Assembly: GCA_948144175.1 (NCBI GenBank) | Contig: CANXME010002579.1 | Location: 1,362,001-1,426,000, forward strand | DNA from: Closterium sp. NIES-65 | Taxonomy: Eukaryota > Streptophyta > Zygnematophyceae > Desmidiales > Closteriaceae | Length of the DNA stretch: 64,000 nt | Direction of reading: 5' to 3' | Shown here: one piece after another, positions 13,315-50,504 of the stretch | How the letters are laid out: every line of letters begins with the position of its first letter | Position numbering within the stretch: the first letter of the stretch is position 1 | The notes under the pieces: generated by a model | What the model saw: the letters and a program-made list of their open reading frames with translations, nothing else | The model's database searches: none | What the model was told of the DNA's origin: nothing | Position numbers and translations under genes: made by a program

Positions 13315-13456
13315 TCTCAGAATCCCAGCCACTAGACCACTGGGATAAAAGGGCTTGTTAAGTAGCGGGTCAGAGTGCGCCCATAACCCTCCAGGCAAAC
13401 GCGCCTGTAACCCCCCGTAGAATCAATCGGGCATCCACAGTGCAGATCTACTGACA
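13315..13456 (-). repeat. Mini-LTR array, LTR copy 3
   Basis: 142 bp. Plus-strand start TCTCAGAATCCC, end CTACTGACA. Nearly identical to the copy at 13758-13899. Confidence 0.9.
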
Positions 13457-13549
13457 CCCCCCCACACTGGGAGGCCCAGGACTGAGCACAACGGCAACGG
13501 CCTACATGTGCATACACCGAGATTCGAACCCGAGACCTTACTGACACCA

Positions 13550-13687
13550 TGTCAGAATCCCAGTCACTAACCACTGGGATAGAAGGGCTTGTTTAAGTAG
13601 CGGGTCAGTGCGCCCATAACCCCCCAGGCAACCGTGCCTGTAACCCTTCCCTAGGATCAATCGGGGATCACCAGTGGACCTCTGACA
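13550..13687 (-). repeat. Mini-LTR array, middle LTR copy
   Basis: 138 bp, same frame of ends but clearly diverged from its neighbours and closer to the LTRs of the 41304-41651 element (shares the GAGGTCCACTGGTGATCCCC start). Confidence 0.85.
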
Positions 13688-13757
13688 CCCCCCCTCACTG
13701 GGATGCCCGAAGTGCACACACCGGGATTCGAACCCGAGACCTTCGCTCTGGATACCA

Positions 13758-13899
13758 TCTCAGAATCCCAGCCACTAGACCACTGGGATAAAAGGGCTTG
13801 TTAAGTAGTGGGTCAGAGTGCGCCCATAACCCTCCAGGCAAACGCGCCTGTAACCCCCCGTAGAATCAATCGGGCATCCACAGTGCAGATCTACTGACA
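13758..13899 (-). repeat. Mini-LTR array, LTR copy 1
   Basis: 142 bp. The primer-like GGATACCA (13750-13757) directly adjoins its inner end. Confidence 0.9.
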
Positions 13900-15754: not shown

Positions 15755-16519
15755 TGGTATCAGAGCAGGTCCTTCGTTAGGACCGATTTTTTAGGGCCCA
15801 CCGTTACCTACCTACCTACCTACCTACCTGCCCCTTAGCGCGCCCCGGTTTCAAGGCCCCCTAAGGCCCCTCGACTCGTGACCCGCTCCTTAGCGACCCG
15901 CGCGTCGCCCCACGCGCACCGCCCCTTAGCGGCCCCGCCGGCCTCGCGTCGCCCCTTAGCGGCCTCGTCGGCCCCGCGCTAGCCCTTAGCGGCCTCGTCG
16001 CCCCCCCCCCCCCCCTCGTCGACTTCTCACGGCCCCGCACTAGCCCTTAGCGGCCCCTCGCCGGCCCCGCGATCGCCCCTAGAGGCCCCGTCGCCCCCCC
16101 GCGCTTGCCCCTTAGCGGCCCCGTCCGCCCCTTAGCGGCCCCTGCCGGCCCCGCGATCCCTTTTAGAGGCCCCGCCAGCCCTGCACCTGCCCCTTCACGG
16201 CCCCGCGTCGGCCCCGTCCGCCCCATTAGCGGCCCCGTCGGCCTCGCGCTCGCCTCCCTACCGGCCCCTCGCGGCCCCGCGCCCGCCCCTAGAAGCCTCC
16301 TCACAGCCGCGCGCTCGCCCCTAGGCCGCACGAACCGCGTCGCCCAGTCCGAGCCGAACCGCGCGACCCGAGCCGAGCCGCGCGACCCGACCGAGTCGCG
16401 CCGCCCTAACCGAGCCGCGCCGCCCTACCTGAACCGAGCCGCGCCGCCTGTACTAAGCAACCCCTACTGCACCTACTGCTACTCCTACTGCTGCTACTAC
16501 TGCCGCTTCTGCTGCTACT
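15755..16519 (+). other. Copia A primer-binding site and GC-rich leader
   Basis: TGGTATCAGAGCAGG (15755-15769) is the iMet-type primer site. The leader is dominated by imperfect repeats of CCCCTTAGCGGCCCCG-like units from about 15.83 to 16.33 kb, a run of about 15 C near 16.0 kb, and then CTGCTACTCC-type repeats. No coding signal. Copia B and K have leaders of the same composition but other units. Confidence 0.75.
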
Positions 16520-39494: not shown

Positions 39495-41303
39495 TCACTC
39501 CTGGCCGTAGCTCGTCTTGACCTGGTTGACCACGCCGCTGAGTTCGGAGCACTGTTGATACTGCTGGCGTGGCAGTCGCTTCGTGAGGAAGTCTGCTGTC
39601 ATGTCACCGGTCGGGCAATAGGTCAAGTTGACTTTGCCCTTATCCACCTCGTCATTCACGAAGAAATACCGCAGTGCAATGTGCTTGGTGCGGTTGACAA
39701 AACCAGGTTTGTTCGCGATGCGAATCACGCTCTGGTTGTCACAGTGAAGGCGAAAGGTTGGCGAAGCTGGAATTTTTGCCTCTTGCAGGAGTTCCTATAG
39801 GTAGAGGCCTTCGCGAACTGCTGCGGTTGCTGCGATAAATTCTGCTTCGGCTGACGACAGGGCAACCAGCTCTTGCTTCTGCAAGTTCCAGGAGATTGGT
39901 CCCGTTGGTTTGAGTCGGAACAGGAAGCCAGTCCTGGACCGTCGATTGTCGGAATCTGCTGCATGATAGACGTCCACATAGCCGATGAGATTGAAGGATG
40001 GGGTTGGTGTAGTTGAGTAGCACAGCCCAATCTTGGGCGTCGAAACAAAGAATTGCAGAGCGCGCTGCAGGTCCAGGTGATTCTCAACAGTTGGTTTGCG
40101 TGAGTACTGGGCTAACTGACTTGCGATGTAAGAGAGATCTGGCCTGCAGGTGACGGAGGCGAAGAGGAGGCATCCCAACTGTTGATGGTAAGTCTGAACT
40201 CCAGCAGGGGATATGGCTTTGTTGTCGGGTTTGTGGTTCGGTCCGGGGGTTCGGTAGGGAGTTGAGAGGGGTGTAGGCAGAATGTTGAACCGCTTCCCTA
40301 ACTCCTCTACGTACTTAGCCGCTGAAAGGTGAATGGCTTCAGGCGCGTAGGAGATGTTGAGGCCTAGGAACTGCTTCACCTCTTAGTTGCACGTGACGTC
40401 AACACGCCCCGCCAAAGCCTTCTCGAACTACTCGAGTAGCTCGTTGTTTGAGCCTGTGTAGAGCAAATCGTCGACGTAGACCGTGAGGAGGATGTATTCC
40501 CCGCGGAAGTCGCGGCGATACATCCCTGGGTCGTGGGGCATCTGCTTGAACCCGATTTCAAGCAGGATGTTGTGCAGATACTGCTGCCACAGCCTCGGTG
40601 CCTGCTTGATCCCGTAGAGTGACTTGCGCAGTTGACACACGCGCGAGTCTCCTTCGCCGTAGGTGTGCGGCTGCTCCACGTAGATCACGGCGTCTACTAG
40701 CGCGTACAGGAACGCGTTCTTCACGTCGATCTGACGGAGTGGTAGGTGCCTTGCAGCTGCGATGGCGAGCAGGATTCGAACGGAGGTGTGGCGGTTGGCT
40801 GGAGCGAATGTCTGGTCGAAGTCGATGCCATGTCTCTGGTCATAGCCGCGCACCACCCAGCGCGCCTTGAAGCGCTCGATCGTTCCGTTTGCTGCGGTCT
40901 TCACGCGGAAGACCCACTTCCCCGAAAGGATTCTTGCACCTTTGATTGCCGCACGGTCGACTAGCACCCAGGTGTCTCGGGACTCAAGCGCCTTGATCTC
41001 CGCATCCATCGCCTCTCGCCACTCCTTGCTATGTGGCCCAGAGAGAGCTTCGCGCGGATTTCGGGGCTCGATGACACGTGGCGCCTTCGAGGTTGCGGTG
41101 TGAAGCCCGAGTAGTTGCAGTCCTGAAATGGTGCTGTCGTGGCGTCGTTGCGGGACGACTTCCTGCACATCATCGTTGTCGCTTTCTGGTTGAGGTGGCG
41201 CTGGTGGCGCTGCGCCTGTGCCGCTTCCGCCTAGTCCGCCCATTCCTCTTGTTGAGGAATCGTCGTCGTCGTCGCTGCTGCGCCGATCCTCCCATGTGAA
41301 CTC
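39495..41303 (-). pseudogene. pol: Copia I RT and RNase H
   Basis: Reading down: WREAMDAEIKALESRDTW and GKWVFRVKTAANG (RT start, about 41.03 kb), FAPANRHTSVRILL, QIDVKNAFLYA, LTVYVDDLLYTG (about 40.46 kb), then RNase H with CRPDLSYIASQL, GYVDVYHAADSDNRRSRTG and KHIALRYFFVNDEVDKGKV (about 39.6 kb). The tail DMTADFLTKRLPRQQY is the usual Copia C-terminus. It is separated from the integrase by the mini-LTR insertion. Confidence 0.88.
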
Positions 41304-41442
41304 TGTCAGAGGTCCACTGGTGATCCCCGATCGATCCTAGGGAAGGGTTACAGGCACATTTGCCTGGGGGGTTATGGGCGCACTAACCCGCTACTGAAAC
41401 AAGCCCTTTTATCCCAATGGTCTAGTGGTTGGGATTCTGAGA
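41304..41442 (+). repeat. Mini-LTR element, 5' LTR
   Basis: TGTCAGAGGTCC...GGGATTCTGAGA, 139 bp. Confidence 0.93.
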
Positions 41443-41512
41443 TAGTATCCAGAGCGAAGGTCTCGGGTTTGAATCCCGGTGTATGCACTTTGGGCATCCC
41501 AGTGCGGGGGGG

Positions 41513-41651
41513 TGTCAGAGGTCCACTGGTGATCCCCGATCGATCCTAGGGAAGGGTTACAGGCACATTTGCCTAGGGGGTTATGGGCGCACTAACCCGC
41601 TACTGAAACAAGCCCTTTTATCCCAATGGTCTAGTGGTTGGGATTCTGAGA
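41513..41651 (+). repeat. Mini-LTR element, 3' LTR
   Basis: 139 bp, differing from the 5' LTR at about one site. Directly preceded by GGGGGGG. Confidence 0.93.
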
Positions 41652-41656
41652 AACTC

Positions 41657-43944
41657 GCCCCTTGTATCCTGCTCCAAGATTGCTGCTGCGGCTTTGTCTT
41701 CGGGCGTTGCGTAGCTGTGTCCGTCATTCGCGTAAATGCGATTCGCGTTCGTCTCCTCGTCGTGATGGAACTGGTCGAGGAAGAACCGCTCGTAGAAGAT
41801 TACGTCGCGAGCGTGGGCGGTTTCCTGACTGAGGAGGTCCAGCACGATCCATGCTTTGTACTCGTGATTGATGCCGAGGTGAATTCTCCAGCGCGCGCGA
41901 CTGGCGAATTTGCCGATGGTTGATGTCGGCGGGCGGTACTGCACCATGCACCCCCACACACGGAGCATGGAGGTATCCCCCTTGGTCCCGGTCCATTTGA
42001 CGTGCGGGGAGAGGTTCCCGGTGATTGCGGTGGTTGAAAGCAGGTTGTGCACCCGCACGACATGGTGCATTACGTAGGTCCAGTAGATCGGCGGCAACTT
42101 CAATTGTTTCATCAGCGCCCGCACCTTTGTCATCAGTGTGCGGTTCGTCCGCTCGGCTACGCCCTGCTGCTGGTGTGCGTAGGGGAGAGAGAAGTGATGC
42201 TCGATCCCCTTTTGCGCCAGGTAAGTCTGCATCTGATTGCTCCTGAATTCTGCTGCGCCGTCAGATTGCCAGATCTTCAGCTTCTCCCCAGATTGCCGTT
42301 GCGCGTGCGCCAGCCAAAGGCGGAACACCTCGTAGGCCCTGTCACGAGTTTCCACGTTCACGACCCACACATAGCGTGTTCCAGTGTCGATGAAGGTGAG
42401 CGTGTATAGCTCGTCGTCGACCCTGCAGTGCCCCACGTTGAGAAAATCGCTGTACACTTTGTGCAGCTTGGGGTAGCGGTTCGTTCCTGGCTCGAGCAGC
42501 GGGAACGGTTGGTGGCTTAGCGCAGCTTTGGGGCAGACGGTGCAGTTGCGCGGATGTGTCGCGCCTCTCACTTCACTGCCATCTGGGCGCAGGAGCGCTC
42601 CAGGAGCGAAGACGCCTGCGTCGATGCAGTTTTTCAGTGTCGCGCGTGAGGGATGTCCGAGGCGCTGGTGCCAAAGTGCATCGTCGGCACGAAAGCCGGA
42701 GGTGCGCATGTAGTGCGCGCGGGCTTCTTCAGGGTCTTCATCAGGTACGGGAGCAGGTTCCGCTGCTGCTTCCTCTGCATCTTCTTCTTCTGCCGCGGTA
42801 GTCAGCATCAGCGCCAGAAATTCTCTGTCGCGAATCTCATAGAGCGGGATGTTGGTCCCAGGAATGGTTCCAAGGACAAGAGTTGGTTCGCGCGGTTTGG
42901 GAGCAGGTCCGTAAGCGGTGCAACGCGGGGTTGACGGCTCGTTGCCCCAGACGATGGTATCCCATGAATCGCGGCGCGGTGGGCTATCAGGAGGAGGTAG
43001 CGCGAGTGGGACATGGCGCGAGGGACGACCGAGGGGAACAACTGCAGATTCTCCAGCAGGTTCTTCTCCCCCCCTTTGTTTTTCGCAGGAAGCCCCCCAG
43101 GCTCTAGTAGAGGCGCCCCAGCCGCTCGTGTCGCCGCCAGATGCAGCGCCCCATCCGCCGGTTGCGGTTGCCCAGGTTCCGCCGGTGTTGCCCCAGTTGC
43201 CAACCTCATCTGTTCCCAATCCGCCGACGCTTCCCCACCCCCCTTCATTGGTGGCGCTCTCTTCCGCTTCGGCGCCCCATGCGGCGCAAGCGAATGTTCC
43301 GCGTGCCTCGGCGAGGCTCTGTTGGCGAAGCTCCTCGGCTTCGCGGCGCGCCAGTTCTTCCTCCTGTTCCACGGTGAGTATTGCCGTGGGGTCGCGCCAG
43401 TGGGGGTAAATCTTCAGAAATTCTTCGTGGGTGTAAGGCTGCGCCACCCCGCGTGTGTCGAAGGTTCCGCGGCGTTGTCCGCGCAGGATGCCTTCAAGGC
43501 GCTGAGAGGGTGGTCCAGCGTGGGGGCTTTGGTCGGTGCCGAACACACGCTGAGTGGTGACTTCAAGTTCGAATTGCGACATCCCTTCTTCTGGCGGCGT
43601 GTGGCGCTCTGCTTCGGCGATGGCGGAGAGTGCGCGGCCGGCAATGGCGCTGGTTGACGTCGTCGGCGTGTGACAGTTCCTGCAGATGCCGTCTGGGTCA
43701 GGGTTGTGCAGCGCCGTTTCACGTGGGTGGGGATGATGCGGCACCCACGGTCTCCCGTTAGGGTGCTTCCAGTCCCTGCGGTGAATGTGCTCGAAGGGGA
43801 GTGGCACAAGGTCGATTAACTCGTGCGAATCGCCGCTGCAGTCGGGGATGTCAAAGTTGAGGACATACACTCCATTCTCGGAGTGTGCTCCGCCAATCTG
43901 CTTGCGGGGAAAGGTGCGCGATTCGTAGTGCAGCAGAATATCGC
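41657..43944 (-). pseudogene. pol: Copia I integrase and upstream region
   Basis: From about 42.7 kb downward: GAG-pre-integrase ALWHQRLGHPSRATLKNC with a CTVC zinc pair, integrase core with FIDTGTRYVWVV, WQSDGAAEFRSNQMQ and HQQQGVAERTNRTLM, then VRVWGC-type sequence (LRVWGCMVQYRPP). Upstream of it lie about 400 codons without a domain I know, including tryptophan/glycine-rich GGWG repeats (about 43.1 kb) and a proline/histidine-rich zinc-like DGICRNCHTP. The left end of Copia K adjoins at about 43.94 kb. Confidence 0.8.
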
Positions 43945-45306
43945 GTGAAGCGTCTGCAGCGGAGCCTCTATCGGAGGAAACTCGGAGGAGTGAGGAGCGG
44001 CGCGCTGCCGCCCCTCGACGCAGGGAACGCAGGTGAGGCCAAGCCCCGGAGGAAGAGAAGGGAGGGACCGGGGGAGACTCGAGACAAGGAAACGAGAGGC
44101 CATGCCTCGGAGACGAGGCAGGGAGGGGTGACCAAGGCGGTGGTGCCAGAGGAGAGTATGGTGAGACAGGAGACGACACGAGTAGGGGGCAGACTCAGGA
44201 CCAGACCTGGACACTGCAGCAAAGACCTGACTCAATGCAGCTACCTGAGGAGACTCAGCAGTCAGTGTGTACAGGATCGACCCCGGCCGACGGGTAAACG
44301 TGGCCAAGTGTCGGCCCGTCCTAGCACATGTACAGTGGGTCACTCGCTGATGTGCAGGGGTGAACTGGTCAACCGTTGCGTCCTGTAGGTCAGCACCACT
44401 CACCAAGTTCGTAGAGAACGAGGGGAGGTAAAGACCCGACAGAGAGCCAAAAGGGGCCGCCAGACACGGTAAGACAGTGGAGAAGTGGGCAAGGACGGGA
44501 CCCCCAGAGGGGTCTGCCAAGGAGACTGCAACCGGCTGACTAAGCGGCGTGAGTGTGGTGCAGTCTCGAAAGAAGGAGCGGGAAGCACCCGAGTCAAGGG
44601 TGAAGGTGCGTAACACCTGAGACGACGTGGTACCTAAGAGAGCAGACTCACCAGCACCTGGGGCAGCAGACTCACCAGCACCTGGGGCAGCAGACTCACC
44701 AGCACCTGGAGGAGCAGACGCACTAGCACCTAGAACAGCAGCCTCACCAGCACCTAGAGCAGCAGCCTCAATGCCCGAGTCAGGCGGAACACACAGGTAA
44801 CAGTCACCCACATCACTAGTAGGAAATGCATACATGGCAGTGAGGATAGCATCATAGTCAAGAGCATAGATATCTACCCTCTGCCTAAGCAGCTCCACCC
44901 AGTCGGGGAGCTCAGCGGCGTCGCCAAACTCCGTACGCGAGACGTCGCTCAGACGGGCGAAGCAGCGGGACTCGGCATGACCAAGCATTCCGCAGGGCTG
45001 ACCAGTCCGAGCACCAGTGCGAATGACGTACGGACAGCGGGCAAAACTCCGTGACCCTCCACGCTGAGCGTACCACTCACGAAGCTGCTGGGGCGAAAGG
45101 ACCGCGGGCGGACTACGCTGAAGCTGCACCTGGCCACTACAAGTAGCTCCCGAACTCCTCACGCCAGAACGACTCCCACTACGGCCACCCCGACAACCGC
45201 AAGTAGCGTACCACTCATGAAGCTGCTGGGGCGTGAGGGACTCACGCGGACGTCGCTGGAGCTGCATCTGGCCACCGCCAGGAGCAGGAGGAGCAGTGGT
45301 AGCCAC
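43945..45306 (-). pseudogene. Copia K gag end, protease and GAG-pre-integrase
   Basis: Two LSPQQLREWYA-type motifs separated by about 140 bp of serine/glycine-rich sequence, then a zinc stretch CPYVIRTGARTGQPCGMLGHAESRCFARL, protease LDSGASRSFFRD (about 44.57 kb) and HHRLGHPSLPRLRG (about 44.1 kb). The REWYA unit is repeated three times at DNA level (about 45.07, 45.21 and 45.37 kb). Confidence 0.82.
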
Positions 45307-49535: not shown

Positions 49536-49720
49536 CGACGGACGACAAGGGAAGGGCCGGGCAGCCGGCTGACGCTGACGAGGAACCCAACGACCAGAAC
49601 GACTGGAAAGGACAGGTGAGACAGGACGCGACGCAGGCTCACGACGCTCAGCAAGGCCCTCGATCTGCTCAGCGTAAGGAGAAGGAGCAGGCAAAGGTGA
49701 GCCAGGCTGTAACGGAAGAC

Positions 49721-50504
49721 CAGTAGACAACGGGAGGCTAAGAACCTGGCAAAGCACGGAGCCAGGCGGGGGCAGAGACGACGGAGACGACGGAGCAAAG
49801 AACAGGCGCGGCTGTGCAGTGCCTCCAGCACCAGCAGCTCCAGCACCCTCAGCAACGCCAGCACCTCCAGCAGCTCCAGCACCACCAGCACCCCCAGCAG
49901 CTCCAGCACCCCCAGCAGCTCCAGCTCCTCCACCAGCTCCAGTACCCTCAGCAGCCCTAGCACCTCCACCAGCTCTAAAACCCTCAGCACCAGCCCAACC
50001 TGGTGCAGCACCCCCAGAACCGGAACCTCCAGTCCCAGGGTCTCCAACCGCTGTGCCACCAGCAGCAGCACCCTCAGACACACCACCGTCAGCCAACGGG
50101 AGACCAGTAGACCAGTAGACAACGGGAGGCTAAGAACCTGGCAAAGCACGGAGCCAGGCGGGGGCAGAGACGACGGAGACGACGGAGCAAAGAACAGGCG
50201 CGGCTGTGCAGTGCCTCCAGCACCAGCAGCTCCAGCACCCTCAGCAACGCCAGCACCTCCAGCAGCTCCAGCACCACCAGCACCCCCAGCAGCTCCAGCA
50301 CCCCCAGCAGCTCCAGCTCCTCCACCAGCTCCAGTACCCTCAGCAGCCCTAGCACCTCCACCAGCTCTAAAACCCTCAGCACCAGCCCAACCTGGTGCAG
50401 CACCCCCAGAACCGGAACCTCCAGTCCCAGGGTCTCCAACCGCTGTGCCACCAGCAGCAGCACCCTCAGACACACCACCGTCAGCCCCAGCACCTCCAGC
50501 ACTC
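49721..50504 (-). repeat. 392-bp tandem duplication in the Copia M linker
   Basis: The stretch starting CAGTAGACAACGGGAGGC at 49721 recurs at 50113, a period of 392 bp. The copies look identical by eye over nearly the whole unit. They encode the glycine/alanine-rich GAAGGAGAAG linker between integrase and RT. Either a very recent duplication or an assembly artefact. Confidence 0.85.

What the first reader, a model, noticed from the sequence alone, without database searches (positions are those of the whole stretch)
41304..41651. 348-bp LTR miniature that carries a tRNA-like Pol III promoter across its LTR/primer-site junction
Seen: 139-bp terminal repeats with about one difference, an exact 5-bp duplication (AACTC), a 70-bp interior with primer-like TAGTATCCAGAGC at its start and GGGGGGG at its end, and no protein. 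TGGTCTAGTGG in the LTR fits the Pol III A-box consensus fully; GGTTTGAATCC in the interior fits the B box with one mismatch; about 36 bases lie between them. Known: TRIM and SMART elements are tiny LTR elements, and Cassandra TRIMs carry a 5S rRNA promoter in the LTR. Inference: this is a tRNA-type counterpart, in which a tRNA-like body spans LTR end, primer site and interior. It blurs the line between SINE and LTR element. If transcription starts at the A box the RNA would lack most of the 5' LTR, so how it copies itself is an open question.
Basis: partly seen in the sequence, partly recalled or inferred. Interest (0 to 1): 0.9.

Follow-up and report, generated by a model that had tools for sequence, protein, structure and literature searches.

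The report
Mini LTR retrotransposon, split tRNA-type promoter
This is a tiny, very abundant parasitic DNA element in a plant-like genome that seems to borrow a tRNA gene's start signals, split between its repeated end and the site where copying begins; elements of this kind were described in 2024, but this split layout looks new.

Summary
In detail: 139-bp LTRs with one difference, a 70-bp interior, an AACTC duplication, no protein. It is a TRIM with thousands of relatives in its 874-Mb genome: 10,590 A-box LTR ends and 3,258 exact primer-site+B-box places, each with 0 control matches. Of 79 sampled distinct elements with two or more LTRs, 71 have an exact 5-bp duplication. Sampled copies mostly carry an initiator-Met-tRNA primer site (TGGTATCAGAGC, or with an extra C); 86 of 94 sampled interiors have a perfect B box, so the window copy's mismatch is decay. 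A and B boxes have tRNA spacing and resemble the host's tRNA-Glu, with the anticodon arm replaced by LTR end plus primer site. Junctions with many Copia leaders suggest Copia as helper. The kind is known (Helenus/TRIMp3, Kojima 2024). Here the B box lies outside the LTR, so only the 5' LTR can be a complete promoter. Transcription is untested.

The parts
41299..41303 (.). 5' target site duplication AACTC
41304..41442 (+). 5' LTR (139 bp, TG...GA; the commonest ends in sampled LTRs are GAGA and GACA)
41400..41402 (+). CAA, proposed Pol III start motif (role recalled from plant tRNA genes, no call); CAA in 176 of 188 sampled LTRs
41407..41410 (+). TTTT; end of the proposed R region in the 5' LTR; 179 of 188 sampled LTRs
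41411..41435 (+). Inverted repeat ATCCCAA/TTGGGAT with the 11-nt A box as its loop
41418..41428 (+). A box TGGTCTAGTGG; exact in 164 of 188 sampled LTRs
41443..41455 (+). Primer-binding site, decayed TAGTATCCAGAGC (in other copies TGGTATCAGAGC or TGGTATCCAGAGC; the first is the complement of the initiator Met tRNA 3' end)
41466..41476 (+). B box, decayed GGTTTGAATCC (86 of 94 sampled interiors have GGTTCGANTCC)
41506..41512 (+). G7 polypurine tract next to the 3' LTR
41513..41651 (+). 3' LTR; has an A box but host sequence instead of a B box downstream
41616..41619 (+). TTTT in the 3' LTR, proposed Pol III terminator
41652..41656 (.). 3' target site duplication AACTC
13315..13899 (-). Second element of the family: three LTRs, two interiors, TSD GGTGG; the middle LTR is of another subfamily than the two outer LTRs

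Best explanation
[quoted passage not shown] Shown: paired LTRs, 5-bp duplications, an initiator-Met primer site, a polypurine tract, an A box at the LTR end and a B box in the interior at tRNA spacing in most sampled copies, tRNA-Glu likeness, and junctions with Copia-type leaders at the primer site. Inferred: TFIIIC binds the A box of the 5' LTR and the B box behind the primer site. Pol III starts near CAA (41400-41402), reads about 219 nt and stops at the T4 of the 3' LTR. The RNA then has about 10 nt (AANCCCTTTT) at both ends as R, the tRNA 5' half as U5, and U3 near its 3' end. The Met-i tRNA primes, Copia reverse transcriptase uses R for the first jump and the primer site for the second, and Copia integrase inserts the product. 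Because the B box is outside the LTR, the 3' LTR and solo LTRs cannot be complete promoters, while each unit of a tandem array can.
For: TSD: 71 of 79 distinct elements with two or more LTRs, against 7 of 1209 offset comparisons (69 of 79 and 6 of 1222 with one query end one base off). Copy number with zero control matches. A box exact in 164 of 188 LTRs, TTTT in 179, CAA in 176. B box GGTTCGANTCC in 86 of 94 interiors; A-to-B start spacing 44, 47 or 48 in the 91 units where both were found. In a listing that did not ask for an A box (30 loci of 3258 primer-site+B-box places, the first listed), 25 of 30 have it with at most one mismatch. The host's tRNA-Glu-CTC (37 of the 51 places) has the same 53-nt length from GTCTAG to TCC as the second subfamily; alignment with the primer site masked gives z = 7.3 against 5000 letter shuffles. 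No TTTT inside the predicted transcript in 77 of 77 units (of 94; the other 17 lack AANCCCTTTT in one or both LTRs), 49.1 expected from shuffles; predicted RNA 219 or 218 nt in 59 of 77 and 244-246 nt in 14; 92 of 94 5' LTRs lack TATA. Copia: family LTR end joined at the primer site to 32 different leader strings, 15 clusters, in 41 places; L062, L066 and L076 show an LTR-like end of another element, primer site, family unit(s), primer site or a mutated one, foreign leader; in the window a leader of this type precedes integrase and RVT_2 genes.
Against: No RNA data. The tRNA covariance model and ARAGORN find no tRNA, so only promoter likeness can be claimed. The alignment test compares with shuffles, not with other tRNAs, and the T-arm is common to tRNAs in general. 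Sampled subfamilies are close relatives: their majority letters agree at 41 of 42 positions in the promoter part of the LTR and 88 of 97 in the rest, not a significant difference (Fisher p = 0.28). Copies are related, so the 77 of 77 are not independent. Of the 90 fetched loci 30 came from a pattern that demands the B box. A T4 lies only a few nt after the proposed start in the 5' LTR. Elements with the same interior but no A box exist (5 of 30; 16 places), and one (L067) has A-less LTRs and a TAGCT duplication.
Confidence: 0.7

Rival explanations
1. An ordinary Pol II TRIM. The tRNA-like boxes are a relic of a captured tRNA or SINE and are carried along without driving transcription.
For: Elements with the same interior but no A box before the primer site exist (5 of 30; 16 exact places), and one of them (L067) has two A-less LTRs and a 5-bp duplication. 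SMART FRetro129 has TATAAAA in its LTR (PMC3281118, passages), so such small elements may use Pol II.
Against: 92 of 94 sampled 5' LTRs have no TATA. A box, B box, CAA and T4 stay together in most sampled copies, including classes whose two LTRs already differ. A-less forms are a minority, and 4 of the 5 read (L062, L066, L076, L085) have an LTR-like end of another element in front.
Confidence: 0.2
2. The conserved segment is kept for RNA structure (hairpins at U5, primer site and T-arm-like loop for packaging or primer annealing), and likeness to a promoter is incidental.
For: ATCCCAA/TTGGGAT encloses the A box as a loop; LTR end and primer site form a 5-bp stem with a 7-nt loop in L057. One stem pair occurs as A-T in 171, G-C in 11 and A-C in 5 of the 187 aligned cells.
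Against: Folding energy is ordinary (z -0.40, -0.38, -0.61). A prediction failed: none of 14 copies with TTAGGAT had the matching ATCCTAA, and 11 of 14 had ATCCCAA. The double change may be inherited once.
Confidence: 0.08
3. A tRNA-derived SINE or satellite-like tandem repeat that only looks like an LTR element.
For: tRNA-Glu-like body, arrays of period about 209 (C1725), unit length near a SINE's.
Against: Fixed 5-bp duplications, TG starts, primer site, polypurine tract, paired LTRs; no A-tail at the ends read.
Confidence: 0.02

Closest known systems
Helenus (TRIMp3), Kojima 2024, PMC10886601 (parts 1 to 5 of 6 of the text and passages seen; supplement not seen)
   Same: TRIM with tRNA-derived A and B boxes, primer site, polypurine tract; plant and fungal families make 5-bp duplications; the Selaginella family has a 120-bp LTR and 85-bp interior; fungal families tied to Copia; in most families the predicted RNA is not a functional tRNA.
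   Different: There the tRNA-derived sequence, with both boxes, is described inside the LTR; here the B box lies in the interior and the primer site sits between the boxes, in place of the anticodon arm.
Cassandra TRIM
   Same: Pol III promoter in a TRIM; same primer site TGGTATCAGAGC and tandem arrays (PMC7215508, passages); RNA with a short repeat at both ends (18 bp, as told in PMC10886601).
   Different: 5S rRNA promoter, wholly in the LTR. Here tRNA type, split.
SMART (FRetro129), PMC3281118 (passages)
   Same: 292 bp, 85-bp LTRs, 5-bp duplications, no protein, primer site and polypurine tract shared with an autonomous element.
   Different: TATAAAA in the LTR; the terms polymerase III and tRNA do not occur in its main text.
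tRNA-derived SINEs (general knowledge, and the introduction of PMC10886601)
   Same: tRNA-type A and B boxes as promoter.
   Different: Insertion by target-primed reverse transcription, no LTRs, no fixed 5-bp duplication.

Membership tests
TRIM | Two LTRs, under 1000 bp, no protein | tested here: met
   348 bp, LTRs of 139 bp; interior 70 bp, 65-94 bp in 94 sampled units
TRIM | Primer site and polypurine tract at the ends of the interior | tested here: met
   TGGTATC(C)AGAGC and G7; initiator-Met-tRNA-like 3' part CGAAACCTGGCTCTGATA at 8 of the 71 places (identity of the tRNA recalled)
TRIM | Fixed-length target site duplication | tested here: met
   71 of 79 with exact 5 bp, control 7 of 1209
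Helenus | tRNA-derived sequence with A and B boxes inside the LTR | tested here: not met
   A box in the LTR, B box in the interior
TRIMp3 (TRIM with a small-RNA-gene Pol III promoter) | Pol III promoter sequence from a small RNA gene | tested here: met
   A and B boxes at tRNA spacing, tRNA-Glu likeness; but no match to the whole-tRNA model
TRIMp3 (TRIM with a small-RNA-gene Pol III promoter) | Transcribed by Pol III | not testable with these tools
   No RNA or occupancy data at hand
Cassandra | 5S rRNA sequence in the LTR | tested here: not met
   No 5S match in the window at gathering score or in 41250-41700 at E up to 10
SINE | No LTRs, variable-length duplications | tested here: not met
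SMART (FRetro129 lineage) | Sequence homology to FRetro129 | not tested
   FRetro129 sequence not at hand

The most novel reading that the evidence does not exclude
The element is a fusion in which the anticodon arm of a tRNA-Glu-type Pol III gene has been replaced by the joint between LTR end and primer-binding site. One 53-nt segment is thus promoter, U5 and replication origin at once, only the 5' LTR of an element can fire, and every 209-nt or longer repeat of a tandem array is a complete transcription and replication unit. Such elements could arise when a tRNA-derived transcript whose anticodon arm matches the Met-i primer site is captured by Copia, a route from SINE-like RNA to LTR element that differs from SINE insertion into an LTR.
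Probability: 0.35. Interest if true: 0.75.

Novelty: new variant of a known kind. Interest (0 to 1): 0.6.

Why it matters
It shows a second way to put a Pol III promoter into an LTR element: split over LTR and interior, which makes the two LTRs unequal as promoters. It offers a concrete R region of about 10 nt, and it gives sequence evidence (junctions with many Copia-type leaders at the primer site) about which autonomous elements may mobilise such TRIMs, a question that PMC10886601 leaves open for Cassandra. The high copy number and near-identical copies make it testable by RNA sequencing in the host.

Tried and rejected
A real tRNA gene in the element: ARAGORN and Rfam found none. The best Rfam hits (Plastid-ycf2, tmRNA T-arm) are far below gathering score.

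tRNA-Glu ancestor with exactly TAGTGGTTNGGAT: the 46 and 14 places all look like copies of this family. One search, allowing one more base, found the host's tRNA-Glu-CTC (37 of 51 places).

A different primer tRNA that would fit TGGTATCCAGAGC: one search found two places with CTCTGGATA, and both look like the family read on the other strand.

Selected hairpin around the A box: the compensatory prediction failed in 14 of 14 copies.

Stronger conservation of the promoter part than of the rest of the LTR: difference not significant.

First TSD count used LTR queries cut at the wrong ends. One search mended two of them but left one a base too long; one search repeats the count with all ends right. 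Searches use the LTR list.

Full report
Observation. The element at 41304-41651 is as described: two 139-bp LTRs that differ at one position, a 70-bp interior, exact AACTC on both sides. It sits, in opposite sense, between a reading frame with an integrase core (41621-44179, rve) and one with RVT_2 reverse transcriptase (40431-41243), so it probably interrupts a Copia element.

Host. The window lies in an unnamed 874-Mb assembly of 2400 contigs. It holds a plant-type RuBisCO large subunit. The PDB sequence scores do not settle the lineage: best 1069 bits (9chz), while chains that I recall as spinach (1ir1 group, with 8ruc) and Chlamydomonas (1gk8) score 1032.6 and 1031.9. I take the host to be a green alga or land plant; no name is claimed.

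Copies. The 348-bp query gave 45 matches, with only 40 of 1855 first-look candidates scored, so this is a lower bound. The CC-type junction pattern (up to two mismatches) has 1159 places, the exact TGGTATCAGAGC plus B-box pattern 3258, and the LTR-end A-box pattern (up to two mismatches) 10,590; each has 0 reversed-pattern matches. Of the 30 best copies 27 have an exact 5-bp duplication; two of the other three have the same flanks, and the third lies in an array. Over the 90 fetched loci L001-L090 plus the window, 103 chains of LTRs were found and 10 repeats of the same flanks were dropped. Of the 79 elements with two or more LTRs 71 have an exact 5-bp duplication, including 8 of 10 with three or more LTRs; of the 14 single LTRs 1 has one. 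Offset control: 7 of 1209. One search, with one query end a base off, gave 69 of 79 and 6 of 1222. The loci were chosen by three queries: best matches to the 348 bp, the junction pattern, and the primer-site+B-box pattern.

Boxes. In 188 distinct LTRs the A box is exact in 164, TTTT present in 179 and CAA in 176. In 94 distinct LTR-interior-LTR units the B box is GGTTCGANTCC in 86. In the 91 units where both boxes were found (up to three mismatches each) the A-to-B start distance is 48 (53 units, CC class), 47 (15) or 44 (23). The CC class looks youngest: 27 of 44 comparable LTR pairs of its main form are identical, against 2 of 14 and 0 of 14 in the other classes listed. The third batch of 30 loci was selected for the B box but not for the A box; 25 of these 30 have an A box with at most one mismatch, 18 of them exact. 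The window copy's B box and primer site are both decayed.

tRNA likeness. The second subfamily reads GTCTAGTGGTTGGGATTC-TGACA-TGGTATCAGAGC-GGTCTCGGGTTCGAATCC, 53 nt from GTCTAG to TCC. The host's tRNA-Glu-CTC is also 53 nt over the same stretch (37 of 51 places; the other 14 are copies of the family). With the primer site masked the alignment scores z = 7.3 above 5000 shuffles; other tRNAs were not compared. The LTR end and the primer site take the place of the anticodon arm and can form a 5-bp stem with a 7-nt loop (L057). Overall folding is no better than in shuffles (z -0.40, -0.38, -0.61), and no tRNA is called. So this is a promoter-like arrangement, not a tRNA.

Transcription model. CAA is recalled as the usual start motif of plant tRNA genes; here it lies about 10 nt before the tRNA-like body, with T4 between them. 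Where AANCCCTTTT is present in both LTRs (77 of 94 units), no T4 occurs between the two, 77 of 77, against 49.1 expected from mononucleotide shuffles; predicted RNAs are 219 nt (46), 218 (13), 245 (10) and a few neighbouring lengths. These copies are related, so the 77 are not independent. R would be about 10 nt; Cassandra's is 18 (told in PMC10886601). TATA is absent from 92 of 94 5' LTRs.

Helper. The exact LTR-end|primer-site joint occurs with 32 different leader strings ending GGGCCCACC, in 41 places, 15 clusters at edit distance up to 4; only the joint was read there. In three loci read further, an LTR-like end of another element is followed by primer site, one or two family units and a foreign leader: L062 has one interior and two family LTRs back to back, then an exact primer site; L066 one interior and LTR, then a mutated primer site; L076 two interiors and LTRs, then a mutated primer site. 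A second copy of the foreign LTR was not sought outside the 3-kb loci. In the window a leader of this type at 15755 precedes integrase and RVT_2 genes. The likely cause is strand transfer between Copia and TRIM copies at the shared primer site inside one particle; that is inference. A gypsy-type element in the window carries the same primer site (position 1250; RVT_1 gene), so use of gypsy proteins is not excluded. L067 is a composite: A-less LTRs of 116 bp and TAGCT on both sides enclose two interiors and a whole family LTR with its A box.

Known work. Kojima 2024 (PMC10886601; text parts 1 to 5 of 6 and passages seen) described Helenus, TRIMs with tRNA-derived A and B boxes in the LTR, and proposed the term TRIMp3. 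Paper searches list no other report of such a layout, judged by titles and starts of abstracts; most subscription papers are not in that library. Gao 2016 (PMC4717578, passages) reports tandem TRIM arrays as common in plants.

Verdict. Real and abundant; known kind, apparently new layout. Pol III use is likely (0.7) but unproven.

Noticed in passing
window 13315-13899 (-): Three-LTR member of the family with TSD GGTGG; the outer LTRs are of one subfamily and the middle one of another, as if two different templates were joined before insertion.
   Followed up: partly
L062, L066, L076; 41 places: Family units joined at the primer site to many different Copia-type leaders, suggesting recombination during reverse transcription.
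   Followed up: partly
L067:1385-1922: Composite element with 116-bp A-less LTRs around two interiors and a whole family LTR, duplication TAGCT; the A-less LTR end plus primer site, with up to two mismatches, occurs at 1071 places.
   Followed up: partly
CC-class copies such as L003-L027: The youngest-looking class has an extra C in the primer site relative to the initiator Met tRNA; no fitting tRNA found.
   Followed up: partly
window 15295 (+) and 36346 (-): Sequence before the primer site and the primer site itself are complementary in two probable LTR elements (TCTGATA/TATCAGA and TCTAATA/TATTAGA), possibly a hairpin kept by paired changes.
   Followed up: no
LTR positions 108-132 (window 41411-41435): Perfect inverted repeat with the A box as loop; one pair occurs as A-T in 171 and G-C in 11 LTRs, but a further compensatory prediction failed.
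   Followed up: yes
G000 C75, C97, C162, C824, C1848, C2174, C40: rbcL in two or more copies and both orientations on each of these contigs, probably plastid DNA assembled into odd contigs.
   Followed up: no
window 49717-50408: Exact repeat (300 nt reported, 100% identical) at spacing 392 in a stretch with Copia-like reading frames.
   Followed up: no
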